Assembly: GCF_001698225.1 (NCBI RefSeq) | Contig: NZ_CP016594.1 | Coordinates: 1,674,001-1,738,000 of the forward strand | Reading direction: 5' to 3' | DNA: 64,000 bases | Origin: Gordonia terrae | GTDB taxonomy: Bacteria > Actinomycetota > Actinomycetes > Mycobacteriales > Mycobacteriaceae | Part shown: piece by piece, positions 23,286 to 34,832 of the stretch | How the letters are laid out: every line of letters starts with the position of its first letter | Position numbering within the stretch: the first letter of the stretch is position 1 | Made by a program: the position numbers and the translations under genes | The notes under the pieces: model-generated | What the model was told of the DNA's origin: nothing | What the model saw: only the letters and a program-made list of their open reading frames with translations | The model's database searches: none

Positions 23286-24320
23286 TCAGGCCGCGGTGTA
23301 GGTGGGCTCGCTGCGAAAACGCGAGGGCCGACCGCTGATGCCGAGTGCACGCCACAGCAGTCGCGACACCGGGTTCATCAGCCCGCTCTGCTCGCCGAGC
23401 ATCCTGACGTCGCCGAAGACGTTGCGCAGGAAACGCTTCGACTCCGCCGACCGCCAGAAGATGTCCTTCATGACCTCGTCGGGGACGTCGAAACGCTTGG
23501 CGAATCCACGCGGGGGCACCACGATCGCGCCGCACAGGATGCGCATGGTCAGCGGGAGCATGAGGGACAGGATGAACCGCTGGAAACGGCCACGCTGCGG
23601 CACCTGCTCACGGATGAGGTGATGGGCGAACGAGATGTGGCGCGCCTCTTCGGCGACATGGAGCTGCATGACCGCCGCCATCGTGGGATGCAGGCTGGCG
23701 CGGGTGCGCAGGAAGTCCTTCTGGATGTGGTCGATCGGCTCCTCGCCGCCGAGGACCCCGAAGAAGAACAGGGTGGGGAAGACGGTCGAGACGAGCGGGA
23801 CGAACGGAGAGATCAGCCGGTAGCCGATCTTGGCACCCGGCACGTCCACCCCGGTGCGGTTGATGAACTCCTGGAACATCAGGGTGTGGTTGCACTCCTC
23901 CTTGGATTCGTGCGTGGTGTACCGGAATTCGCGCGCGCCGTTGGGGAGCTTGAAGCTGTACTGCATCAGGCCGCGGATGAGGATCGACTCGAACTGCAGT
24001 CCGACCTTGGCGACGTTGGCCTGGCGCCACATGCCGATCTCGATCTGCTTCTCCTGGGGAAGCTGCTGGTACCACGGGTGACGGCCGATGGGATCGACCT
24101 CGTAGGACAGGATCCACCGGGGGTCGTTCTCGGTGATCGCCATGTGCGGCGCGTCCCAGTCGATGTCCACGTAGGGATCGAAGTTGCGGTGGACCGAGGC
24201 CGCGGACAGGTCGTCGAGCACCTGGCTGTAATCGTGGTCGCCGCCGGATTTGTCGTGCTGCGGCACGTAGCGGGCGGGGGCCTCGTGCTCCCGATCGGTC
24301 GGGGTGAGTGCTTTCGTCAT
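23286..24320 (-). CDS. AurF-like diiron oxygenase
   Basis: A 344-aa ferritin-like diiron enzyme. Metal-ligand motifs are HESKEECNHTLMFQEF and VAEEARHISFAHH (ExxH type), with a further E in GLQFESILIRG. This matches the AurF/CmlI group of N-oxygenases, which oxidise aryl amines to nitro compounds; many actinobacterial members have unknown substrates. ATG 24320 has AAGGGA upstream. It heads an operon with fprB, a small protein and a DMT exporter, which could be electron donor and product exporter. A consensus promoter precedes it. Confidence 0.88.
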   Translation of the reverse strand: MTKALTPTDREHEAPARYVPQHDKSGGDHDYSQVLDDLSAASVHRNFDPYVDIDWDAPHMAITENDPRWILSYEVDPIGRHPWYQQLPQEKQIEIGMWRQANVAKVGLQFESILIRGLMQYSFKLPNGAREFRYTTHESKEECNHTLMFQEFINRTGVDVPGAKIGYRLISPFVPLVSTVFPTLFFFGVLGGEEPIDHIQKDFLRTRASLHPTMAAVMQLHVAEEARHISFAHHLIREQVPQRGRFQRFILSLMLPLTMRILCGAIVVPPRGFAKRFDVPDEVMKDIFWRSAESKRFLRNVFGDVRMLGEQSGLMNPVSRLLWRALGISGRPSRFRSEPTYTAA

Positions 24321-24409: not shown

Positions 24410-24508
24410 CACTCGATGTCACGTTCGATACCGGCACAATGGGCTGGTGCGCGTGTCGGTCGATGTCCGGCTTCGGGGGCTGACCTGGTGAGACGGGTGT
24501 AATTCGAT

Positions 24509-24524
24509 CGGGTTATATAACCCG
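24509..24524. promoter_or_regulatory. 16-bp perfect palindrome upstream of the FHA/antiporter operon
   Basis: CGGGTTATATAACCCG is exactly symmetric, with GA/TC flanks also matching after one mismatch. It is centred about 41 bp before the start predicted from TAGAGT (24546-24551), a typical regulator position. Confidence 0.6.
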
Positions 24525-24545
24525 GTCGAGGCGATGATCGCGGGT

Positions 24546-24551
24546 TAGAGT
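24546..24551 (+). promoter_or_regulatory. Putative -10 of the FHA/antiporter operon
   Basis: TAGAGT, 40 nt before the leader ORF ATG at 24592, downstream of the palindrome. Confidence 0.4.
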
Positions 24552-24591
24552 TACCACCGTCCGTGCCCGTGTCTGCTCACCTGGAGGAGCG

Positions 24592-24702
24592 ATGTCCCGT
24601 CGTGTTCACGCGTCCCAGCGCTTCCGGGCCCCGACGCACTCCACCTGCGCCCGCCGGCACGAAGCGCCCGCGGTCGTGACCCGGGTCCGGGGCCGGTCGT
24701 GA
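24592..24702 (+). CDS. 36-codon arginine-rich leader ORF
   Basis: ATG 24592 has a strong GGAGGAG ribosome site 3 nt upstream. The ORF encodes 36 residues, nine of them Arg (starts MSRRVHASQRFRAP, ends VVTRVRGRS), with one Cys. Its TGA overlaps the GTG of the next gene (GTGA). That gene has no ribosome site of its own, so the ORF probably drives its translation. It could also act as an attenuating leader. No homologue is recognised. Confidence 0.5.
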   Translation: MSRRVHASQRFRAPTHSTCARRHEAPAVVTRVRGRS

Positions 24703-26444
24703 ATCAGCCGCCGCAGGGTCCGACGCGTGTCGTCCCCTCGCCGGGCGGGCCTCCTCCGGGTATGCCCCATCCGGGCGGTCCCCGCCCGGGTGCGCCGGGT
24801 CCCCATCGGCCCGGTCCGCCGCCCCCGCCTGCTCCCGGTCCGATGCCGCGGCAGGCCCCGCGGTCGCCGAACCGGGGTGCGCCCGGTCCCGGCGGTGCCC
24901 TCGGTGATCTGACCCCGCAACTCATCGACACCGACATCTGGACCGACGCGATGGTCGAGGGAGCGGGCATTCCCGTCGTCGACGTCCCGTTCGTGACGGT
25001 CGGGTCGGGCATCGGCTCGTTCGTGACCGTCGACTACTTGCGGATCAGCGGGGTGCCGCTCGATCGGATCGCGGTGCTCGGCCCGCAGGACGTGCCGTGG
25101 CACAGCTATGAGTACCTGACGCGGGTGTCGCAGATCCCCCGTGGGGAGCGCCTGCGTTCCGACTCGGCGTCGACCCCGGACAACATCTGGGGTTTCCCGT
25201 CGTACGCGGTCCGGGAGGCGTGGGCGGACAAGAAGTTCAAGCCTCTGTGGAATGTGTTGGTGGAACCCGTCTTCGCGAACTTCTACACGCCGAAGGCCGG
25301 ACAGGCATTCGCCTCGATGGAGAAGGAGTGCGAGCGCATCGGCTACCTGAAGTGCCTGCACCGCGGCCAGGTCCGGATGATCCGGCGTCGCGCCGGTGGC
25401 GGGTACTTCACGATTCTCACACCGCCACAAGGATCTTCGCCCACCAAGCGGGTGGCGTTCCGCAGCCAGTGGGTCCACGTCGCGATCGGTTACCCCGGGA
25501 TCAAACTGCTGCCCGATCTGCAGGCGTTCCGGGAGACCTACCGCGACGCCAGCAAGGTCGTGAACGCCTACGAATCCCATGAACACATCTATCAGTCGTT
25601 GCAGCGCAAGCCCGGCACCGTGGTGATCCGCGGCGCCGGGATCGTCGCCTCCCGGGTTCTCCAGCGACTCATCGACGATCGCGACGCGTACGGGCTCCAG
25701 ACGCAGATCGTGCACCTGTTCCGCACCTACTACGACAAACCGCACGGGCCGCACATCTTCATGCGGCGCAAGGGCAAGGACGGCTGGGCCTATCAGGGGT
25801 TCAACTACCCGAAGTCGGTCTGGGGCGGACAGCTCAAGGCCCGGATGCGCAAGCTCGAGGGGCATGAGCGGGCCGAGGCGTACAAGCAGATGGGCGGCAC
25901 CAACACGCCCGTCCGCGACGACTGGCAGGAGCAGCTGGCGCGTGGGCGGCGCGAGGGCTGGTACCGCGTCGCCGTCGGGAAGGCAGAGAGTCTGGTGCCC
26001 GCGGCGGGTGGTCAGGGTGTGGTGACCACGGTGCGGGTCGACCCGCACGCACCGATCCGACAGGACCACCGGCCCGACGGGACCTTCGAGATCTACGCCG
26101 ACTACGTGATCGACTGCACCGGACTCGAAGCCGACGTTCGCGAGCACCGCCTGCTGCGCGACCTGCTCGACCACACCGGTGCCGGCATCAACCCCGTCGG
26201 CCGCATGGATGTCGAACGTGACTTCGAGCTGAAGGGCACGCGGAGCGGGAACGGCAAGCTCTACGCCTCCGGCAGCGCCACACTCGGGGGCTATTTTCCC
26301 GGCGTCGACACGTTCCTCGGCCTGCAGATCGCCGCCCTGGAGATCGTCGACGACCTGGCGCGCCAGGGTTTCTGCAAGCGCCTGACGCCGTGGCGGTCGA
26401 CCGCTCAGTGGTGGCGCTGGATGAACAACAAGGGAGTCGACTGA
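24699..26444 (+). CDS. Proline-rich FAD/NAD(P)-binding oxidoreductase-like protein
   Basis: A 581-aa protein. Residues 1-66 are a Pro/Gly-rich low-complexity arm. A first Rossmann nucleotide-binding site follows (VTVGSGIGSFVTVDYL, ~100-114), and a second at ~310 (TVVIRGAGIVASRVLQRL). The C-terminal part has YVIDCTGLEAD and a KLYASGSATLGGYFPGVDTFLGLQIAALEI stretch, the typical FAD-domain ending of flavin monooxygenase/reductase proteins. No membrane helix. Substrate and partner are unknown. GTG 24699 overlaps the leader ORF stop. It is the first large gene of an operon with a membrane protein, an FHA protein, an antiporter and a pseudokinase. Confidence 0.75.
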   Translation: MNQPPQGPTRVVPSPGGPPPGMPHPGGPRPGAPGPHRPGPPPPPAPGPMPRQAPRSPNRGAPGPGGALGDLTPQLIDTDIWTDAMVEGAGIPVVDVPFVTVGSGIGSFVTVDYLRISGVPLDRIAVLGPQDVPWHSYEYLTRVSQIPRGERLRSDSASTPDNIWGFPSYAVREAWADKKFKPLWNVLVEPVFANFYTPKAGQAFASMEKECERIGYLKCLHRGQVRMIRRRAGGGYFTILTPPQGSSPTKRVAFRSQWVHVAIGYPGIKLLPDLQAFRETYRDASKVVNAYESHEHIYQSLQRKPGTVVIRGAGIVASRVLQRLIDDRDAYGLQTQIVHLFRTYYDKPHGPHIFMRRKGKDGWAYQGFNYPKSVWGGQLKARMRKLEGHERAEAYKQMGGTNTPVRDDWQEQLARGRREGWYRVAVGKAESLVPAAGGQGVVTTVRVDPHAPIRQDHRPDGTFEIYADYVIDCTGLEADVREHRLLRDLLDHTGAGINPVGRMDVERDFELKGTRSGNGKLYASGSATLGGYFPGVDTFLGLQIAALEIVDDLARQGFCKRLTPWRSTAQWWRWMNNKGVD

Positions 26445-26445
26445 C

Positions 26446-26895
26446 ATGTTGCCCACCCTGTGGGGGCGAATCCAGACCCGCGTGCTCGTGCTCGGCATCC
26501 TCGGTGGTCTGTGGACCATCGTGCTGGTCCCGTTCCTCTGGCTGATCTCCTCGGGTGATCCGACGATCCTCGACGTCTACCGGGTCGCCTTCACCGTGCT
26601 CGTCACCGTCATCGTCCTCGGGGTGTTCTGGGAATTCCTGTACCACTTCCTGCAGCAGTTCCGGTGGGAGAAGGACTGGCCGACGCTGTTCGGGCTCCTC
26701 ACCGCCATCAACGAGGGAATTCTCGTGTGGGTGGTGATCGACAACACGGGACTCATCCCGGAGTCCCTTCGGCCATCTCCCTTCGTGTTCTCGGTCCAGT
26801 TCGTCACCACGTGGCTGCTCGTGTGGGTGGCGGTCAACGGGCCACTGCGAGCGGTCTTCCCCCACTGGCGATTCCAGGGAGGTCGTTTCCTGTGA
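26446..26895 (+). CDS. Four-helix membrane protein
   Basis: A 149-aa integral membrane protein. Hydrophobic segments lie at about 13-35, 46-66, 80-98 and 108-128. Conserved-looking polar residues sit in and between helices (FWEFLYHFLQQFRWEKDWPT, then LLTAINEGILVWVVIDN). No family is recognised. ATG 26446 comes 1 nt after the stop of the flavoprotein gene, and its own stop overlaps the FHA gene start (GTGA). It therefore sits in a tightly coupled operon and may anchor the FAD or FHA protein. Confidence 0.78.
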   Translation: MLPTLWGRIQTRVLVLGILGGLWTIVLVPFLWLISSGDPTILDVYRVAFTVLVTVIVLGVFWEFLYHFLQQFRWEKDWPTLFGLLTAINEGILVWVVIDNTGLIPESLRPSPFVFSVQFVTTWLLVWVAVNGPLRAVFPHWRFQGGRFL

Positions 26896-28373
26896 CCAGC
26901 CCGGGCGACATCCCCAGCGTCACACCGACCGTGACGCTGATCCGCGGGGAGGGGGTCGTGATCCGCACGCCGGCGTTCCTGTGCCTGGTGAACGACGCGG
27001 TGCCCGCGTCCTTCCTCACCGACCTCCTCGACATCGAATCGGCGGTCTCCGTACCGGATTCGGCACCCCGACGCGGACGGCACCTGGTGCGGGCGCTGGC
27101 ACAACTGGTGGCCACCGCAGCCGACCCGGTCGACATCGCCTTCGCCGCACCCGACAGTGCCGGCATCGCGATCTTCCTCTCGGGCCGGGTGTACGGCGAG
27201 ACCGACGGCAAGCGTGTCGAAGCGGCCGCCGGCGACACCTACGACCGCGCCGTGCCGTGGCCGTACGAGGGTCTCGGGCTGTATCTCGCCGGCACCGAGC
27301 CGGCCGAGGTCGGCGAGGAGCGATTCGACCTGGTCGAGGGCACGGTGCCCGCCGCGGGTGCGTTGCTGCACACTCCACTCGGCCTGCGCGGCACCGAGTT
27401 CCACGCGGTGTCCGACAGAGCGGCGCAGCCTCGGCCCGACGGAGCGGCGCAGCCGCGGCCGGACCGGGTTGTCGAACCGTCCCGACCCGACCCGGATGCG
27501 GGGCCGCCGACCGAGGCGCTGGGAGGGCTCGACGAGCCGGATCATCCCGAGATGCCCAGAACTCCGGCGCCCGAAGCGGAACCGGAGCCCGACCCGATGG
27601 GCACCACCGAACGGATGGCCCCCGGCGCCGGGAGCCCCGGATCGCCCGCACCGGACCCGCTGCCGTTCACCTCGACTCCGCTGGGCGGCCCGTTCGAGGC
27701 GGAACCGTTGTCGCCGAACGCGCCGCTCCCGTCCGAGCCCGCGCCGCGGGACGTCATGCCGCCGGGCGGACGCGCGCCCGTCGAACCCGGAGCCGCGTCG
27801 AATCCGTTCGCCGAGCCTCTCGAACCGCGCGCGCCCCTGCCCAAGGCAGAGCATCAGAAGCCCGCGACCGAGGTCGTCAAGATCGAGGCCTCCCGGGCCA
27901 TGGTCCACGGGATACGTTGCTCGCGAGGCCATCTGAACCACCCGCAGTCGTGGCTGTGCGGAGTCTGCGGAATCCGGATGGATCAGTTGACGACCTTCCT
28001 CGTCGAGGGGGAGCGGCCGCCGCTGGGCTGGTTGCTGCTCGACAACGGATTCACCTTCCTGCTCGACGAGGACCTGGTCATCGGTCGAGAGCCGGGATCA
28101 GCCGGAGGCGGACCGGCGGCTTCGCCCAAACCGATTCGCGTACAGGACGAAACCGGTCAGCTGTCGCGGCGGCACGTCGAGATCCGGCTGGTGGAGTGGA
28201 CGGTGCAACTGGTCGACCTCGGGTCCGCCAACGGCACCTTCGTCGCCGATCCCAGCAACGGCAACCGCGAGACCCGCCTGCTGCCGCATCGTGCCCATGT
28301 GCTGGTGCCCGGATCGCATGTGCGAATCGGCGGTCGGCACTTCATCTTCGAGTCGCACCACGCCCGCATCTGA
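26892..28373 (+). CDS. FHA-domain protein with zinc ribbon
   Basis: A 493-aa protein in three parts. Residues 1-180 are a globular domain of unknown family (TLIRGEGVVIRTPAFLCLV; IAIFLSGRVYG). Residues ~180-330 are a Pro/Glu/Ala-rich linker. The C-terminal third has a zinc ribbon (CSRGHLNHPQSWLCGVCG, Cys343 onward) and an FHA domain (VIGREP, LSRRHVEIRLVEWTVQLVDL, SANGTFV), which binds phosphothreonine peptides. The FHA signature residues G-R, S-x-x-H and N-G are intact. GTG 26892 overlaps the preceding stop. In the same operon is a kinase-fold protein without a catalytic Asp, so the phosphorylated partner must come from elsewhere. Confidence 0.85.
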   Translation: MTSPGDIPSVTPTVTLIRGEGVVIRTPAFLCLVNDAVPASFLTDLLDIESAVSVPDSAPRRGRHLVRALAQLVATAADPVDIAFAAPDSAGIAIFLSGRVYGETDGKRVEAAAGDTYDRAVPWPYEGLGLYLAGTEPAEVGEERFDLVEGTVPAAGALLHTPLGLRGTEFHAVSDRAAQPRPDGAAQPRPDRVVEPSRPDPDAGPPTEALGGLDEPDHPEMPRTPAPEAEPEPDPMGTTERMAPGAGSPGSPAPDPLPFTSTPLGGPFEAEPLSPNAPLPSEPAPRDVMPPGGRAPVEPGAASNPFAEPLEPRAPLPKAEHQKPATEVVKIEASRAMVHGIRCSRGHLNHPQSWLCGVCGIRMDQLTTFLVEGERPPLGWLLLDNGFTFLLDEDLVIGREPGSAGGGPAASPKPIRVQDETGQLSRRHVEIRLVEWTVQLVDLGSANGTFVADPSNGNRETRLLPHRAHVLVPGSHVRIGGRHFIFESHHARI

Positions 28374-28386
28374 GGGATCCGAGGTC

Positions 28387-30510
28387 ATGGAGAAACACAC
28401 GATCGCCTTCCTGCTGCTCGACGTCGCGGTCGTCATCGCCGCCGCCCGGGTGGGCGGGATGATCGCGCGGGCGTGCCGTCAGCCGGCCGTGGTCGGCGAG
28501 ATCGCCGCCGGGATCGCGCTGGGCCCCAGCCTGCTCGGACTCCTGCCCGGCAATCCCGACCAGTGGCTGTTCCCCGACGACGTCCGGCCGCTGCTGGGCG
28601 CGCTGGCGCAGATCGGTCTCGTGCTGTTCATGTTCATCGTCGGCCTCGAACTGGACATGAGGCTGACCAAGGGGCGTGAACGCGCGGCGGCGAGCATCTC
28701 GGCCTTCTCGATCGCCCTGCCGTTCGCTCTCGGTGCCGGGCTCGGAGTGCTGCTCTACCCCTCGCACAACATGGTCGGGGGCATGGAGATCGAACGGCTC
28801 GGGATGGTGCTGTTCATGGGCGTCGCGATGTCGATCACCGCCTTCCCGGTACTGGCGCGAATTCTCACCGACCGCGGGATGATGCGGACCGTCCCCGGCG
28901 TGTTCAGCCTGGCCGCGGCCGCGATCGACGACATCCTGGCGTGGACGCTGCTGGCCTTCATCATCGCGATCATCCAGGGCGGCAGTCCGCTCGAGGTCGC
29001 CAAGATCGTCGGGCTCACGCTCGTGTACGCGGCCGTGATGTTCGGCGTGGTTCGTCCCCTGCTGGCCAAGCTGATCGCGTGGCGCGACACGGCCGGCCGG
29101 CTCACCCCGGACATCCTGGCGGTCATCCTGATCGGGCTGTTCCTCTCGGCGGCGGCGACCGACGTCATCGGCATCCACCAGATCTTCGGCGCCTTCGTGT
29201 TCGGCGCGGTGATGCCGAAGGTGGGGGCCGAGCAACTGCACCGGGAGATCCTCGAGCGGCTCGAGCAGGCGAGCGTGCTGCTTCTGCTGCCGATGTTCTT
29301 CGTCGTGACCGGACTCAACGTCGACCTCACCGAGATCGGGTTCGCGGGGATGGGGCAGTTGCTCCTGGTCCTGCTCGTCGCGATCGCGGGCAAGTTCGTC
29401 GGTGCCTATGCCGGCGCGCGGGTGAGTGCGATACCCACCAGGCAGAGTGCGGCCATCGCGGTGTTGATGAACACGCGCGGACTGACCGAGCTGGTGATCC
29501 TCGCCGCCGGCCGGGAGCTCGGCGTGCTGAGCGACGAGCTGTTCGCCATGCTCGTCGTGATGGCGCTGGTGACCACGATCCTGACCGAGCCGTTGTTGCG
29601 CGTGGTGTACCCGGACCGGGTGGTGGCCAACGACATCGCGGCAGCCGAGCGGCGTGCGCTGGCCACCGCCACCGCACCCCGGGTCCTGGTGCTGATCCGC
29701 GATCCCGTCGGAACGGTCGCGGACCTGCGGGCGAGGCACCGGCGAATGCTGGATTGCGCCACCGGATTCGACGTCGTGCTGGCCGGTCTGCTCACTGCTC
29801 CGGATCGGTCCGCCCGTCCACTCGAGGTCGGTATCCCGGTGGTGCCGGACTTCGCGGCGATCGCCTCGGCCGTCGAGAAGCTCTCCGAGCTGGGCTCGTC
29901 GCTGACCGGCGCGGGTTCGGTCTCTGTGCTGTGCCGGTTCAGCGCCGATCCGGCCGCCGACCTCGACGCGATGTCGGAGAACGCGCATGCCGACATCATC
30001 GTCGTGGACAGTGTGGACCGATCCCTGGGGGAGTCGCTGCGATCGGCCCCGGTCGCCGTGATCGACGAGGCCGCCGATGCGGCGGTGGCCCCGGGTCGCA
30101 GCACCGTCACCTGCTTCGCTGCCGACAGTCGCAGCGGCCGGACCGCTGCGCTGGTGGCCGCGGGTCTGGCGCTCTTCGGATCGCGCTCGCTGACCGTCGT
30201 CGCATCGGGGTCCCGGCGCCGGTGGCTCGCAGATCTCAACGCTGTTGCGGAACAGGGAGTCTCGGTGTCGGTGCAGGATCCGCGGCGGCATCGCGACGAT
30301 GCGGTGTCGTTCGCCGTCGCCGCACCGGACGAGGGTGGCCCGGGCGCACCGGTTCCGGTCACCGTCGTCGACAACACCGGGACAAGCGAGGAATCGCTGG
30401 GCGACCGCGTGGCGGCCCTCTATCCGCCGCCGGTGGCGCAACCCACGCCGTCGCGAGCGGCCCCCGACACATCCAGCCCCGACATCGGTTCATCATCGGA
30501 GAGGCACTGA
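28387..30510 (+). CDS. CPA2 monovalent cation/proton antiporter
   Basis: A 707-aa transporter. Residues 1-400 form the Na+/H+ exchanger (CPA2) core of about 12 helices, with AAGIALGPSLLGLLP, LVLFMFIVGLELDM, FSLAAAAIDDILAWTLLA (the Asp pair of the ion site) and MNTRGLTELVILAAGRELGVL. From ~420 a soluble C-terminal region shows two UspA-like alpha/beta repeats (RVLVLIRDPVGTVADL; VTCFAADSRSGRTAALVAAGLALFGS) and a disordered tail. This architecture is that of KefB-like antiporters without a TrkA-N domain. ATG 28387 lies 13 nt after the FHA gene. Confidence 0.9.
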   Translation: MEKHTIAFLLLDVAVVIAAARVGGMIARACRQPAVVGEIAAGIALGPSLLGLLPGNPDQWLFPDDVRPLLGALAQIGLVLFMFIVGLELDMRLTKGRERAAASISAFSIALPFALGAGLGVLLYPSHNMVGGMEIERLGMVLFMGVAMSITAFPVLARILTDRGMMRTVPGVFSLAAAAIDDILAWTLLAFIIAIIQGGSPLEVAKIVGLTLVYAAVMFGVVRPLLAKLIAWRDTAGRLTPDILAVILIGLFLSAAATDVIGIHQIFGAFVFGAVMPKVGAEQLHREILERLEQASVLLLLPMFFVVTGLNVDLTEIGFAGMGQLLLVLLVAIAGKFVGAYAGARVSAIPTRQSAAIAVLMNTRGLTELVILAAGRELGVLSDELFAMLVVMALVTTILTEPLLRVVYPDRVVANDIAAAERRALATATAPRVLVLIRDPVGTVADLRARHRRMLDCATGFDVVLAGLLTAPDRSARPLEVGIPVVPDFAAIASAVEKLSELGSSLTGAGSVSVLCRFSADPAADLDAMSENAHADIIVVDSVDRSLGESLRSAPVAVIDEAADAAVAPGRSTVTCFAADSRSGRTAALVAAGLALFGSRSLTVVASGSRRRWLADLNAVAEQGVSVSVQDPRRHRDDAVSFAVAAPDEGGPGAPVPVTVVDNTGTSEESLGDRVAALYPPPVAQPTPSRAAPDTSSPDIGSSSERH

Positions 30511-30511
30511 C

Positions 30512-31324
30512 ATGGCGACAGTCGAGATCCCGCAGCAACTGGCGGATTTCACGGTGCTCGAGAAGCTCGGCATGGGCGGCAACGGGACGTTCTACCTCGC
30601 CGTGCCGCCGGCCCGATTGGGTCTGCGCACCGACCGCGTGGTGGTGAAGGTCTTCGGGGGAGTCTGCAGCGACGACGCCTACCGCCGAGGCGTGCGCGAA
30701 CTGCGGGCATTCGCGGCCGTCGTGTCGCCCTACCTCGCGGGCCTCTACGACGCGGTGCTGCAGGGCCAGTTCATGTACGCGATGGAGTACTTCCCGCTCG
30801 GCTCGCTGGGCAGTCCGGCCCGCGAGTTCAGCCGAGACGAGAAGCTGGCCGCCATCGCCGACGCGGCGCGCGGGGTCGACGCACTGCACGAAGCCGGGAT
30901 CGCGCACGCCAACATCACGCCGTCGAGCATCATGGTCACCGACACCGGCGGCAAGATCTCCGATCTCGGCCTGGCCCGGGTCCTCGCCGCCGACGAACCC
31001 ATCACGAGCTTCGCCCAGCCCGGCGCGGTGCAGTACATGGATCCGGCACTGCTGGCGGGTGACGTGCCCTCGCGTGCGACCGACATCTGGTCGCTCGGAG
31101 CCTGTCTGCACCGTGCCCTCACCGGCGACGGGGTGTACGGGGAGGTCCCGGACGCCCAACCCCTGCTGGCGATCCGGGCGGCGCTGTCGACCCCGCCGGC
31201 GCTCTCGGAGAATCTGGACCGCGACGAACGCACCCTGATCGCCAACTGCCTGGCGCTTGCCGGTTCGCGTCCGTCGACCGCCTCGGAGGTCGCCGGCCGG
31301 ATCGACGCGCTCCGCGGGCGCTGA
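30512..31324 (+). CDS. Soluble serine/threonine kinase-fold protein, probable pseudokinase
   Basis: A 270-aa kinase-fold protein with no membrane helix. The Gly loop GMGGNG (20-25), Lys46 in VVVKVF, Glu63 of helix C and the DFG-equivalent D151-L-G are present. The catalytic loop reads HANITPSSIM (132-141) where active kinases have HRDxKPxNI. The catalytic Asp is Asn134, the Lys is Thr and the metal-binding Asn is Ser139. ATP may still bind, but phosphotransfer is unlikely. ATG 30512 is 1 nt after the antiporter stop. It is the last gene of the operon and could act as a scaffold for the FHA protein. Confidence 0.85.
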   Translation: MATVEIPQQLADFTVLEKLGMGGNGTFYLAVPPARLGLRTDRVVVKVFGGVCSDDAYRRGVRELRAFAAVVSPYLAGLYDAVLQGQFMYAMEYFPLGSLGSPAREFSRDEKLAAIADAARGVDALHEAGIAHANITPSSIMVTDTGGKISDLGLARVLAADEPITSFAQPGAVQYMDPALLAGDVPSRATDIWSLGACLHRALTGDGVYGEVPDAQPLLAIRAALSTPPALSENLDRDERTLIANCLALAGSRPSTASEVAGRIDALRGR

Positions 31325-31369
31325 CCCACGACCTCGCACCGGCCGCCGGGCGGGCGACAGTCCGGGCGG

Positions 31370-32851
31370 TCAGCCCAGCGGCGCGGTTCGCCACCAGTCG
31401 TCCAGGATCTCGCGGCCGGTGTGCCCGGGCCACGTCGTCACCAGGGTGTACTCCGCGTATGGTGAACCGCTGAAATTCGTGACGACCCAGCCGTCCGCCA
31501 CACTGTCCCGGCTCGTCGAAGCCGGCCCGTCCCGCCAGCTGATCTCGTCTCCCGGAAAACCTTTCAGGTCGGCCGTGACAGCGGCACGTGCGGCCGGCGT
31601 CGGCGTGCGCCACACCACGAATCCGACGCTCGCGTCGTCAGTACACGAGATGCCGTCGACGCCGTCGCGGAAGACCGCCGCGCAGGCGGCATCGCGCCAG
31701 CCGGTCCCCTCGGGTGTGTCGGGGAGGAGTTGCGGGAAGGCCGCGGCGATCGGGGCGACGGTCGACGGCCACGGGGGCCGGGTGGTGCGCGCACCGAGGA
31801 GCATCAGCGATCCGACGACGACGGCGACGACCAGCGTCGCGACGAGAAACGGTGCGATCCATCGACGGCGTCGTGGCGACGCCGGCACCGGTGTCGTGGA
31901 CGGCTGCCCCGTCGCCGCGACCGTCCGGTTCCGGTCGGTGCTGATCTCGGTCGGCCGGTCCGGATGACCTGCGGGCTGGAACACGCGTGGGACGTGGTCC
32001 GGGCGGGGCGCGTTCGCGACGATGACCTCGGTCGGAAGTTCGCCGCCGGTGTGCGTGAGATGTAGGGCGAGTTCGGCGGCGCGGACGAATTCCGCGCAGG
32101 TGCGGTATCGGTGATCGGAACCGGCGTCGAGTGCGCGCGCCAGCACGGCGTAGAAGGCCGGCGACACGGCTCCCGACACCCGATGCCGTGCGACCGAGTC
32201 TGTGCCGGTGAGCAATTCGACGAGTGTTCGACCCAGGGAAGCGACATCGTCTGCCGGATGCGGCATCTGGTCACCGTTCGCCGGTGCGGTGAGGCCGAAC
32301 CCGGTGAGCGTGACGACCCCGGGGGTCGCCGCGGCGGAGGCGGCCAGGTCTGCGGACTCGGCGAGCAGGATGTCGGCGGGGGAGACGTTTCCGTGCACCA
32401 GTCCTCGGCGGTGTGCGGCGTCGAGCGCCTCGCCCACGATCGAGACGATGCGCACCGCGAGTTCGTTGTCGATGCCGTCGGGCCGGCGGCGGACGACCAG
32501 TGCGGCGTCGGAAGCAGGCACGGGTGTGACCGCCACCCATGACCGCCCGCCGGCAGAACCATGACCGGCGACGCGTGCGATCGCGGGATGCCGCATCGTG
32601 GAAGCCTTTTCGAGCGCAACGGGGAACCAGCCGCCGAACCCGGGGTCGGCCGAGGTCCCCCGGTCGACAACGGTGAGCAGAACCCGCCCGGCAGGCGAAC
32701 CCGGTGTCGGGGGCTCCCCGGCGCCGCCGTGGCGGACGGTCGCGAGGTAGTCCGTACCGTGCGGGCGCCTGCGGAGCAGGCGGTCGACGCGATGAGGCCC
32801 GACGAGAGTGCCGGGCAGGAGTGGCTCGTCGTGAGCCGGACCGACGGACAC
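31370..32851 (-). CDS. Membrane-anchored kinase-fold protein, probable pseudokinase
   Basis: A 493-aa protein: kinase-like domain (~15-265), linker, one membrane helix (331-352) and an extracellular domain of ~140 residues with three cysteines. The kinase fold is recognisable from DAAHRRGLVHGNVSPADILL and DDVASLGRTLVELLTG. It lacks a Gly loop and the ATP-binding Lys. It has HGN (153-155) for HRD and TGF (183-185) for DFG, so it should be catalytically dead. The layout copies PknB-like receptor kinases. GTG 32851 has GAGGTGAGGG upstream. It is convergent with the soluble kinase-fold gene, 45 bp away. Confidence 0.82.
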   Translation of the reverse strand: MSVGPAHDEPLLPGTLVGPHRVDRLLRRRPHGTDYLATVRHGGAGEPPTPGSPAGRVLLTVVDRGTSADPGFGGWFPVALEKASTMRHPAIARVAGHGSAGGRSWVAVTPVPASDAALVVRRRPDGIDNELAVRIVSIVGEALDAAHRRGLVHGNVSPADILLAESADLAASAAATPGVVTLTGFGLTAPANGDQMPHPADDVASLGRTLVELLTGTDSVARHRVSGAVSPAFYAVLARALDAGSDHRYRTCAEFVRAAELALHLTHTGGELPTEVIVANAPRPDHVPRVFQPAGHPDRPTEISTDRNRTVAATGQPSTTPVPASPRRRRWIAPFLVATLVVAVVVGSLMLLGARTTRPPWPSTVAPIAAAFPQLLPDTPEGTGWRDAACAAVFRDGVDGISCTDDASVGFVVWRTPTPAARAAVTADLKGFPGDEISWRDGPASTSRDSVADGWVVTNFSGSPYAEYTLVTTWPGHTGREILDDWWRTAPLG

Positions 32852-32859
32852 GGCGCCCC

Positions 32860-32874
32860 CTCACCTCAGGTGAG
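32860..32874. promoter_or_regulatory. Palindrome CTCACCT-C-AGGTGAG before the membrane pseudokinase
   Basis: Perfect 7-bp arms lie between a minus-strand TAAAGT -10 (near 32880) and the GTG at 32851, overlapping the ribosome site. It is either an operator or a hairpin that masks the ribosome site. Confidence 0.5.
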
Positions 32875-32939: not shown

Positions 32940-33245
32940 TCATTCGAAGAGGAGCGGGGCGGAGTTGAACAGCATCACGATGAAGAAGAACAGCAGGAAC
33001 CACGCACCGCCCTGCCACACCTGCCAGCGGCCGTTGCGCTTCCAGACCAGGTACGTGCGGTACAGCATCGCGCTCGCGCCCACGAGAACCACGACGGGGG
33101 AGGCCACGACGAGTACGGTCTGCAGCGAATCCGACGACGCGTGGGCGAGGAACAGCAGGCCGAGTCCGAGGGCGACGGTGATCCCGACGTGGATCAGGAT
33201 CGCGCGAAAGTCGTTGGTGCCGTTCTGCGGAAGCGGTGACGTCAT
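32940..33245 (-). CDS. Small membrane protein
   Basis: A 101-aa protein with three hydrophobic segments (about 15-33, 40-59 and 78-95) and a short polar N-terminus MTSPLPQNGTND. It has a basic loop YRTYLVWKRNGRWQVWQGG, and the last helix is rich in Phe (WFLLFFFIVMLF). No family is recognised. ATG 33245 follows TAACCT by 10 nt on the minus strand, so the leader is only a few bases. It lies upstream of the membrane pseudokinase gene on the same strand but 88 bp away. Confidence 0.7.
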   Translation of the reverse strand: MTSPLPQNGTNDFRAILIHVGITVALGLGLLFLAHASSDSLQTVLVVASPVVVLVGASAMLYRTYLVWKRNGRWQVWQGGAWFLLFFFIVMLFNSAPLLFE

Positions 33246-34382: not shown

Positions 34383-34832
34383 ATGACGCTGAAGAAGCTG
34401 GAGCTCTCGGTCGGGGAGCTCGCCCAGCGGGCCGGTATCGCCCCGTCGGCGGTCCGCTTCTACGAGGACCAGGGCCTCATCTTCAGTCGGCGCACCTCGG
34501 GTAACCAGCGCCGTTATCACCGGGCGATGCTGCGGCGCGTGGCCTTCATCCGCGCGTCGCAGGTCGCCGGTATCCCGCTGTCGGTGATCGGTGAGGTGCT
34601 CGCCGAACTCGGCGACCATGAATCCCCGCCCAAGTCGATGTGGGAAGCGGCGTCGAAACGCTGGATGGACGACATCAATCACCGCATCGCGCTGCTCGAG
34701 AACATGCGGGACATGATCGGCTCGTGCGTGGGTTGCGGCTGCCTCTCGCTCGGGGAGTGTCACCTCCTCAACCCCGGCGACGAACTCAACAAACTCGGTC
34801 CGGGGCCGCGCCGACTCCTCACCGATCAGTAG
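34383..34832 (+). CDS. soxR: Redox-sensing MerR-type activator SoxR
   Basis: A 149-aa MerR-family regulator. The N-terminal winged helix begins LSVGELAQRAGIAPSAVRFYEDQGLI. A dimerisation helix follows. The C-terminal cluster C115-x2-C118-x-C120-x5-C126 is the SoxR [2Fe-2S] ligand set. SoxR is switched on when redox-active compounds oxidise the cluster; in actinobacteria it controls a small set of oxidoreductase and exporter genes. No soxS is seen, as usual in this group. The gene has a leaderless promoter. Confidence 0.93.
   Translation: MTLKKLELSVGELAQRAGIAPSAVRFYEDQGLIFSRRTSGNQRRYHRAMLRRVAFIRASQVAGIPLSVIGEVLAELGDHESPPKSMWEAASKRWMDDINHRIALLENMRDMIGSCVGCGCLSLGECHLLNPGDELNKLGPGPRRLLTDQ

What the first reader, a model, noticed from the sequence alone, without database searches (positions are those of the whole stretch)
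24506..32874. Candidate undescribed system: leader ORF - flavoprotein - membrane protein - FHA/zinc ribbon - CPA2 antiporter - two pseudokinases
Five plus-strand genes with overlapping or near-touching ends (GTGA, 1 nt, GTGA, 13 nt, 1 nt) tie together a Pro-rich FAD/NAD protein, a four-helix membrane protein, a phosphothreonine-reader (FHA), a cation/proton antiporter and a soluble kinase-fold protein. A convergent neighbour is a receptor-like kinase-fold protein. I know of no described pathway with this set. A redox- or signal-controlled ion transport module is an inference.
Basis: partly seen in the sequence, partly recalled or inferred. Interest (0 to 1): 0.72.

Follow-up and report, generated by a model that had tools for sequence, protein, structure and literature searches.

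The report
Conserved flavoprotein-antiporter signalling gene module
A set of five neighbouring genes, including two protein families that the databases searched do not name, recurs as a unit across very different actinobacteria and probably couples a membrane flavoprotein to kinase-type signalling and, in many cases, to an ion antiporter.

Summary
With flavoprotein A as anchor, the 4TM protein B is adjacent in 80 of 80 loci; FHA/zinc-ribbon protein C is found in 79, CPA2 antiporter D in 51, kinase-fold E in 54. In Gordonia, A, D and E are all-or-none: the same 22 of 59 genomes, with an empty site in five of six readable non-carriers. A distant branch repeats A-B, with FHA genes beside it in 4 of 5. 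A and B match no Pfam or NCBIfam family and no PDB sequence; A models as a two-dinucleotide-binding flavoprotein.

Corrections: the core is A-B-C (16 Nocardia loci lack D and E). E has intact kinase motifs in other families; its catalytic Asp was lost at least twice, yet E stays constrained in Gordonia (dN/dS 0.02-0.08). F is not core. The 'leader' is fused in frame to A in two relatives.

Most likely: a membrane flavoprotein complex under phospho-signalling control whose common output is cation/proton antiport; analogous to KefF-KefC, not a member. Mechanism is inferred.

The parts
24592..24702 (+). short 'leader' ORF with strong Shine-Dalgarno, ending in a GTGA overlap with A; same element as the 5' end of A in some relatives
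   Evidence: The SD-ATG (MSRR...) starts A in frame in L022 and L024 (L171 is the same contig as L024) and ends after 11-37 aa in L021 (=L164), L023 (=L172), L166, L167, L168, L169. Which state is older is not resolved.
24699..26444 (+). A: two-dinucleotide-binding (FAD/NAD(P)) flavoprotein with a Pro-rich disordered N-terminus; family not in Pfam or NCBIfam
   Evidence: no curated family, no PDB sequence relative; fold of PvdA/SidA-type N-hydroxylating monooxygenases and YpdA; invariant GxGxGS and GxGxxAS motifs; no Cys among the invariant columns (C473 is nearly invariant).
26446..26895 (+). B: four-helix membrane protein with invariant GRxQxR, WE..YH...Q.RWEKDWP, GP.R and WR..GGR motifs; family not in Pfam or NCBIfam
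   Evidence: no PDB fold hit better than E 0.9; adjacent to A in 80 of 80 loci.
26892..28373 (+). C: N-terminal domain of unknown fold, long Pro-rich linker, zinc ribbon, C-terminal FHA domain
   Evidence: FHA in 24 of 24 members scanned; invariant C343/H347/C356/C359 and FHA G398-R399, S425-R426-x-H428, N447-G448; closest solved FHA domains GarA/OdhI and FhaA (TB39.8; the name FhaA for it is recalled).
28387..30510 (+). D: CPA2 cation/proton antiporter (NapA-like membrane domain) with a Usp-like C-terminal tail, no KTN/RCK match
   Evidence: PF00999 in 19 of 19 members; Usp in 8 of 19 (best 5.7e-7); D181-D182 and K336 align with an Asp-Asp and a Lys of the solved Na+/H+ antiporter 4bwz (NapA, name recalled); D182 and K336 invariant in 19.
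30512..31324 (+). E: soluble kinase-fold protein, catalytic Asp replaced (HRD to HAN), ATP-site Lys and DLG Asp kept; kinase motifs intact in other families
31370..32851 (-). F: convergent receptor-like degenerate kinase; optional neighbour, not core
32940..33245 (-). first gene of the right flank (outside the module); abuts the empty site in non-carriers
   Evidence: Found in 11 of 12 named Gordonia loci (cluster 25) and in the non-carrier sites.

Best explanation
A conserved actinobacterial module built round a membrane flavoprotein complex. A (FAD/NAD(P)-type flavoprotein) sits on the cytosolic side of the small membrane protein B; C, an FHA adaptor, ties A-B to phosphothreonine marks; E, a motif-intact kinase in several families and a kinase fold without the catalytic Asp but with its ATP-site residues in Gordonia, writes or scaffolds those marks; D, a NapA-type cation/proton antiporter with a Usp-like tail, is the commonest output. 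I think the complex reads an electron-carrier, quinone or redox state and sets ion/proton exchange through the phospho-adaptor, as KefF does for KefC, but with unrelated parts. Shown here: the gene set, its co-inheritance, the domain content, the retained and lost motifs, selection on E. Inferred: A binds B, C binds a phosphothreonine of a partner, D is controlled, the signal is redox.
For: A-B-C together in 79 of 80 loci; A and B on the same strand in 80 of 80 with a median of 14.5 nt between their aligned ends; D in 51, E in 54; no other gene family in these neighbourhoods exceeds 16 of 80 loci. A, D and E are in the same 22 of 59 Gordonia genomes (G021 has only a 37%-identical exchanger), and the block is missing from one site in five of six readable non-carriers. 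Divergent genomes re-order the same genes in one direction: D-A-B-E-C (L120, L121), A-B-E-C (L125, L126). A distant A-B branch (hhalign 99.3%, E 1.5e-20 for A; 86.8%, E 4.2e-6 for B) has FHA genes beside it in 4 of 5, a kinase nearby in 2 of 5 and a CPA2-Usp protein in 1 of 5. E stays under strong purifying selection in Gordonia after loss of the catalytic Asp. D keeps an Asp pair and a Lys that align with the solved Na+/H+ antiporter 4bwz. Precedents: KefF-KefC (PMC2920069, passages), MviN-FhaA (PMC12599244 and PMC11898655, passages).
Against: A-B-C occurs without D and E in 25 of 80 loci: 16 Nocardia, 2 Parafrankia, two (L045, L100) whose genome has a D-E pair elsewhere, four cut close to the module by contig ends (L048, L051, L068, L074) and L086. 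In the 6 Nocardia and 2 Parafrankia genomes tested the best exchanger was 36-47% identical over the membrane domain only. So the antiporter cannot be the only output. In two divergent genomes a TauE/SafE transporter sits in the operon instead. In a Pseudonocardia (L069, L118) D is away from both A-B-C and E. No contact between any two proteins was tested. A's substrate and cofactor are not known, and part of its most conserved stretch (365-377, 400-405) is poorly modelled. A phosphothreonine motif before the zinc ribbon of C is not consistent across lineages.
Confidence: 0.42

Rival explanations
1. A-B is a metabolic membrane enzyme (an N-hydroxylase- or reductase-like flavoenzyme acting on a membrane or envelope substrate); C and E regulate its activity, and D or TauE merely handles the protons, cations or anions that its reaction disturbs.
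For: A's fold is closest to ornithine N-hydroxylases and YpdA. A-B-C stands alone in 16 Nocardia loci. The transporter differs in two divergent genomes, TauE/SafE for CPA2. A has the lowest or near-lowest dN/dS of the set (0.021-0.055).
Against: No further gene family recurs beside the module in more than 16 of 80 loci, so no pathway partner is seen. A partner set of kinase, FHA and antiporter is unusual for a plain enzyme.
Confidence: 0.3
2. Two independent sub-modules, A-B-C and D-E, share a site but act separately.
For: A D-E pair lies apart from A-B-C in L116 and L119; D flips strand (antisense to C in 33 of 51).
Against: L120, L121, L125 and L126 place E between B and C in one run; in Gordonia A, D and E occur together or not at all. 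In L069/L118 E stays with A-B-C while D is elsewhere, so D-E is not a fixed pair either.
Confidence: 0.17
3. A stress- or phage-defence system with a kinase sensor and an ion-transporting effector.
For: E and F hit PADLOC kinase models such as PD-T4-6 and Mad6; presence is patchy, 15 of 296 phylum genomes.
Against: Those hits are to kinase domains; A, B, C and D hit nothing in PADLOC. The right flank is shared by 11 of 12 named Gordonia loci, so the block is not roaming between islands there. Neighbouring genes were not screened for defence families.
Confidence: 0.05
4. Chance neighbours in this genome.
For: None found.
Against: and the all-or-none pattern.
Confidence: 0.01

Closest known systems
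KefF-KefC (glutathione-gated K+ efflux with flavoprotein subunit)
   Same: A flavoprotein encoded with a CPA2 antiporter; KefF is needed for full KefC activation (PMC2920069, passages).
   Different: KefF is an FMN quinone-reductase-like protein, A has a two-dinucleotide-binding fold; KefC carries a KTN domain, D has no KTN match and a Usp-like tail; kinase, FHA and B have no counterpart there that I know of; A-B-C exists without D.
MviN pseudokinase - FhaA (phosphorylated pseudokinase recruiting an FHA protein)
   Same: Kinase-dead fold paired with an FHA protein at a membrane transporter (PMC12599244 and PMC11898655, passages).
   Different: MviN's pseudokinase is fused to a lipid II flippase and its motifs are degraded; E is a separate protein that in Gordonia keeps Lys and DLG and lacks the catalytic Asp; no flavoprotein or B is described there.
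PvdA/SidA N-hydroxylating monooxygenases and YpdA-type reductases
   Same: Overall fold of A.
   Different: 10-18% identity in the structural alignments listed, no Pfam family match, a highly conserved stretch near 362-405 that is partly unmodelled, Pro-rich N-terminus, constant neighbour B.
NapA / CPA2 antiporters
   Same: Membrane domain of D with an Asp pair and Lys aligned to 4bwz.
   Different: Usp-like C-terminal tail in D (8 of 19 members by Pfam).
GarA/OdhI and FhaA FHA domains
   Same: Best solved relatives of C's FHA domain.
   Different: C adds a zinc ribbon, a long linker and an N-terminal domain without Pfam match.

Membership tests
Kef K+ efflux systems (KefC-KefF) | CPA2 membrane domain | tested here: met
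   PF00999 in 19 of 19 D proteins; TIGR00932 match below its cut-off.
Kef K+ efflux systems (KefC-KefF) | KTN/RCK domain on the antiporter | tested here: not met
   No KTN family among the nine Pfam families matched by 19 members at E up to 1; Usp in 8.
Kef K+ efflux systems (KefC-KefF) | KefF-type FMN quinone-reductase subunit | tested here: not met
   A's model matches PvdA, SidA and YpdA; no flavodoxin-type Pfam match in 33 members.
Kef K+ efflux systems (KefC-KefF) | Flavoprotein binds and activates the antiporter | not testable with these tools
   Needs flux and binding assays.
MviN-FhaA type phospho-pseudokinase complexes | Kinase fold without catalytic residues | tested here: met
   E: HAN in 12 and HGN in 1 of 13 Gordonia rows; HRD or HGD in other families, HRE/HRN/HRH in four rows.
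MviN-FhaA type phospho-pseudokinase complexes | FHA partner with phosphothreonine-binding residues | tested here: met
   Invariant GR, SRxH and NG in 24 C proteins; that these bind phosphothreonine is recalled for FHA domains, binding itself not tested.
MviN-FhaA type phospho-pseudokinase complexes | Pseudokinase fused to a lipid II flippase | tested here: not met
   E is a 270-aa protein covered by the kinase domain, residues 13-258.
Class B-type N-hydroxylating flavin monooxygenases (PvdA/SidA) | Two dinucleotide-binding folds | tested here: met
Class B-type N-hydroxylating flavin monooxygenases (PvdA/SidA) | Sequence-family membership | tested here: not met
   No such Pfam match in 33 members at E up to 1.
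Class B-type N-hydroxylating flavin monooxygenases (PvdA/SidA) | Amine N-hydroxylation | not testable with these tools
   Needs enzyme assay.
CPA2 antiporters | Na_H_Exchanger domain with ion-binding Asp pair | tested here: met
   D182 and K336 invariant in 19 members, D181 not fully.
Known phage-defence systems (PADLOC) | Full component set of a listed system | tested here: not met
   Only kinase-model hits for E and F; nothing for A, B, C, D.

The most novel reading that the evidence does not exclude
A new class of bacterial redox-to-ion signalling complex: a flavoprotein on its dedicated four-helix membrane partner reads the NAD(P)H/electron-acceptor state, an FHA adaptor and kinase relay it, and a NapA-type antiporter resets ion and proton balance; in Gordonia and in one other lineage the kinase has lost its catalytic Asp and, in Gordonia, has become an ATP-site-bearing, non-catalytic switch that stays under strong selection.
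Probability: 0.3. Interest if true: 0.86.

Novelty: categorically new. Interest (0 to 1): 0.72.

Why it matters
Two large protein families (A: 2001 relatives at E up to 0.001 in a candidate-capped search; and its constant membrane neighbour B) have no name, domain or solved sequence relative in the libraries searched, yet keep one gene neighbourhood across deep actinobacterial branches. That makes a testable unit: one operon, natural empty-site strains, one flavoprotein to purify. E gives a natural series from motif-intact kinase to kinase-dead within one conserved gene set, so the question of what a bacterial pseudokinase does after losing catalysis can be asked directly. If the antiporter is under control of the complex, it would be a second, independently evolved flavoprotein-linked antiporter system beside Kef, in bacteria that use mycothiol rather than glutathione (recalled).

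Tried and rejected
Genome accident: rejected. Antiporter as universal output: rejected, because A-B-C occurs without it. Leader as a separate component: not supported; in frame with A in two genomes (L022, L024), separate in seven (window, L021, L023, L166-L169), L165 no match, L170 cut; the more distant Gordonia L025-L027, L029, L030, L062 show no clear counterpart in the alignment. The single-sequence search found it only in L021. F as core: rejected; no hit in 4 of 12 Gordonia loci (L028-L031), motif-intact in L026 and L062. Its dN/dS is 0.20-0.32, but the motif-intact pair L026/L062 also has 0.197, so the higher ratio is not tied to decay. Phosphothreonine motif in C: a loose pattern, written after seeing some sequences, matched 23 of 70 stretches against a shuffled mean of 8.5 (maximum 16), but the matches look lineage-specific, so I do not claim it. 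B fold search: best E 0.9, uninformative. B by sequence in the PDB: only two hits at E about 0.7; C: only the FHA domain. Defence: PADLOC kinase hits only. PMC7159879, passages: FHA three times, no antiporter, exchanger, flavin or pseudokinase. Paper searches on the gene set gave no description of it; the library is open-access only. One search listed 120 of 2001 hits, 120 of 1073, so wider taxonomy is not fully seen. A CPA2 tail beside distant A in L158 was suspected from a 96-aa fragment but gave no Pfam hit, so it is not counted.

Rows dropped: the locus scan found 120 places and kept 80. The kinase table covers clustered E-like genes only; the tree leaves out F-type kinases over 350 aa except one in L123, one truncated E (L083) and one degenerate short kinase (L064); it flags long branches. 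Profiles were built from the same loci, and the bit thresholds were mine, so its counts lean upward; the single-sequence search gave A 80, B 80, C 75, D 51, E 55, gene clustering 80, 75, 73, 51, 50. In one search A was compared without its Pro-rich N-terminus (502-531 codons), and some dS are near 1. For the empty site I fetched 7 of the 14 non-carriers whose flank gene is at least 69% identical; L179 was too short to judge and L178 carries other DNA in the gap. Carriers G020 and G035 have only a 46%-identical flank gene and L030 has other flanks, so the module may sit elsewhere there.
Full report
What is in the sequence. Pfam finds FHA in C, Na_H_Exchanger in D and Pkinase in E; A, B and F have none, and A and B also have none in NCBIfam. 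The window lies in a 5.70-Mb genome of one contig whose nearest named relative in the scan is Gordonia lacunae (98% in A).

Is the set conserved? I anchored on A. A scan of genome contigs found 120 places, of which the best 80 were fetched with up to 10 kb on each side. Single-sequence searches found B in 80, C in 75, D in 51, E in 55 of 80; profile searches built from the same loci gave 80, 79, 51 and 54. A and B are on the same strand in 80 of 80, with a median 14.5 nt between their profile-aligned ends. The one locus without C (L052) is cut by a contig edge. The orders are: A-B-C with D antisense, then E, 26; A-B-C only, 25; all five in line, 15; E antisense upstream and D antisense, 7; A-B-C-E-D, 3; A-B-C-E, 2; A-B, 1; E antisense upstream with A-B-C, 1. 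No other gene family exceeds 16 of the 80 loci. Loci span Gordonia, Nocardia, Antrihabitans, Geodermatophilaceae, Pseudonocardia, Nocardioides, Micromonosporaceae, Streptosporangiaceae, Thermomonospora, Parafrankia and others.

Co-inheritance. Of 59 Gordonia genomes, A is in 22, E in 22, D in 22 at 62-100% identity plus one 37% exchanger in G021. Comparing the printed lists by eye, the 22 genomes are the same, and in each A, D and E lie on one contig in that order on one strand. B, C and F were not searched genome by genome. A right-flank gene (34383-34832) is found in 51 of 59, at 69% identity or more in 34, of which 14 are non-carriers. I fetched the site from seven of these. In five (L173-L177) left-flank genes known from carrier L026 run straight into the right flank with 36 to 256 nt between aligned ends and no hit to A-F; L178 has about 2.3 kb of other DNA there and L179 is too short. 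So at this site A-E (with F where present) come and go as one block. In the phylum, A is found in 15 of 296 sampled genomes, 12 of them strong, two of the 12 Gordonia: widespread but patchy.

Deeper relatives. Of the divergent genomes fetched, L120 and L121 have D-A-B-E-C in one direction, L125 and L126 A-B-E-C, L122 A-B-TauE-E-C and L123 A-TauE-E-C (the TauE/SafE identity is; B of the L123 genome is seen in L110); L124 gave little. A profile of three weak hits (A5) relates to A over 400 columns (hhalign 99.3%, E 1.5e-20), and the protein next to them relates to B (86.8%, E 4.2e-6; an N-terminal GRxxTR motif is shared). Five such distant pairs could be read (L127, L128, L129, L158, L159; L129 and L159 are one genus): A and B are adjacent in 5 of 5, an FHA gene is beside them in 4 of 5 (L128's contig ends just after B), a kinase is near in 2 of 5, and a CPA2-Usp antiporter in 1 of 5. 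The other loci of weak hits (L160-L163) showed no such pair. The same functions are thus assembled in two deeply split branches.

The kinase story. In the tree of 54 kinase rows HRD is intact in Nocardioides, Micromonosporaceae, Thermomonosporaceae and Streptosporangiaceae, HGD in Geodermatophilaceae, Pseudonocardia, Occultella and Antrihabitans, and HAN (12) or HGN (1) in the 13 Gordonia rows, which form one clade (100/100); a separate clade (98/98) of L120, L121, L125 and L126 has HRE, HRN or HRH. On this tree the catalytic Asp was lost at least twice while the gene stayed in the module; L126 also has a second, HRD-type copy. In Gordonia the beta3 lysine and the DLG aspartate stay; in L125 the lysine is gone as well. 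Over six close Gordonia pairs dN/dS of E is 0.023-0.075, like A (0.021-0.055) and below B, C and D in every pair; F is 0.197-0.321 in the four pairs that have it, and the lowest of these is the motif-intact pair (NG86). So E is a constrained kinase-dead protein; F evolves faster whether or not it is degenerate. F has no hit in L028-L031 and is motif-intact in L026 and L062.

The leader. The SD-ATG at 24592 is shared by near relatives. In L022 and L024 it opens A itself in frame; in L021, L023, L166, L167, L168 and L169 it ends after 11-37 codons, as in the window. It is thus the same element as A's 5' end, separate or fused according to frame changes in a non-conserved Pro-rich stretch; which state is older I cannot say.

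Chance. The genome has 4 exchanger, 6 FHA and 20 kinase-domain matches. By my arithmetic, random placement would put all three kinds within 10 kb of A in about 2 of 100,000 genomes; the arrangement recurs over many families.

How it most likely works. The constant part is a flavoprotein with a membrane partner and an FHA adaptor; kinase and antiporter join in many lineages, a TauE/SafE transporter in two genomes, neither in the Nocardia loci. I infer a membrane redox or electron-carrier sensor (A-B) whose state is passed through phosphothreonine recognition (C, E) to transport (D). KefF-KefC shows that a flavoprotein can be an integral gating subunit of a CPA2 antiporter (PMC2920069, passages), and MviN-FhaA shows that an FHA protein can be recruited by a phosphorylated pseudokinase at a membrane transporter (PMC12599244, passages, outline and sections 7 and 13; PMC11898655, passages). 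Neither is homologous as a system: D has no KTN match, A is not KefF-like, E is not fused to a flippase. In one distant genus (L129, L159) the A-B pair directly follows an anti-sigma-type zinc-finger gene and a sigma-70 family gene and is near a SCO1/SenC gene, which fits a stress or redox role but is one genus only.

Verdict. Observation confirmed; the 'system' claim survives its own refutation test; its composition needed correction. No description was found in Pfam, NCBIfam, PADLOC or in paper searches of an open-access library. I rate it categorically new as a gene system, made partly of known domain types, with the mechanism at moderate confidence.

Noticed in passing
L122:7611-8894 and L123:7652-8962: A TauE/SafE-type transporter sits in the A/B...E-C operon in two divergent genomes; no D-profile hit among the genes called in the fetched stretches.
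   Followed up: partly
L129:7517-8745 and L159:8318-9549: The distant A-B pair directly follows a zf-HC2 gene and a sigma-70 family gene, with SCO1/SenC nearby (same genus).
   Followed up: partly
L116 (Antrihabitans stalagmiti): A D-E pair lies outside the fetched surroundings of A-B-C, and the D match carries two in-frame TAG in the search row.
   Followed up: no
L054, L064, L067, L071, L077: These Geodermatophilaceae loci carry an extra degenerate kinase beside E and a motif-intact longer kinase, and several a motif-intact kinase divergent from A: repeated kinase decay at this locus.
   Followed up: no
window 23286-24320 (-): AurF-type N-oxygenase gene divergent from A in the G. lacunae group; about 5-6 kb away in carriers L026, L027, L029, L062 and present in six of seven non-carrier sites, so a flank gene.
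   Followed up: partly
P0008 and P0009: A of G. soli and G. jinhuaensis is named 'FHA domain-containing protein' or similar in public records, although no FHA match was found in the A proteins scanned; probably a transferred name.
   Followed up: no
L075, L076, L078-L080, L082, L084: Nocardioides-group loci have what look like ABC-transporter genes near D (judged from the sequences printed; not searched).
   Followed up: no
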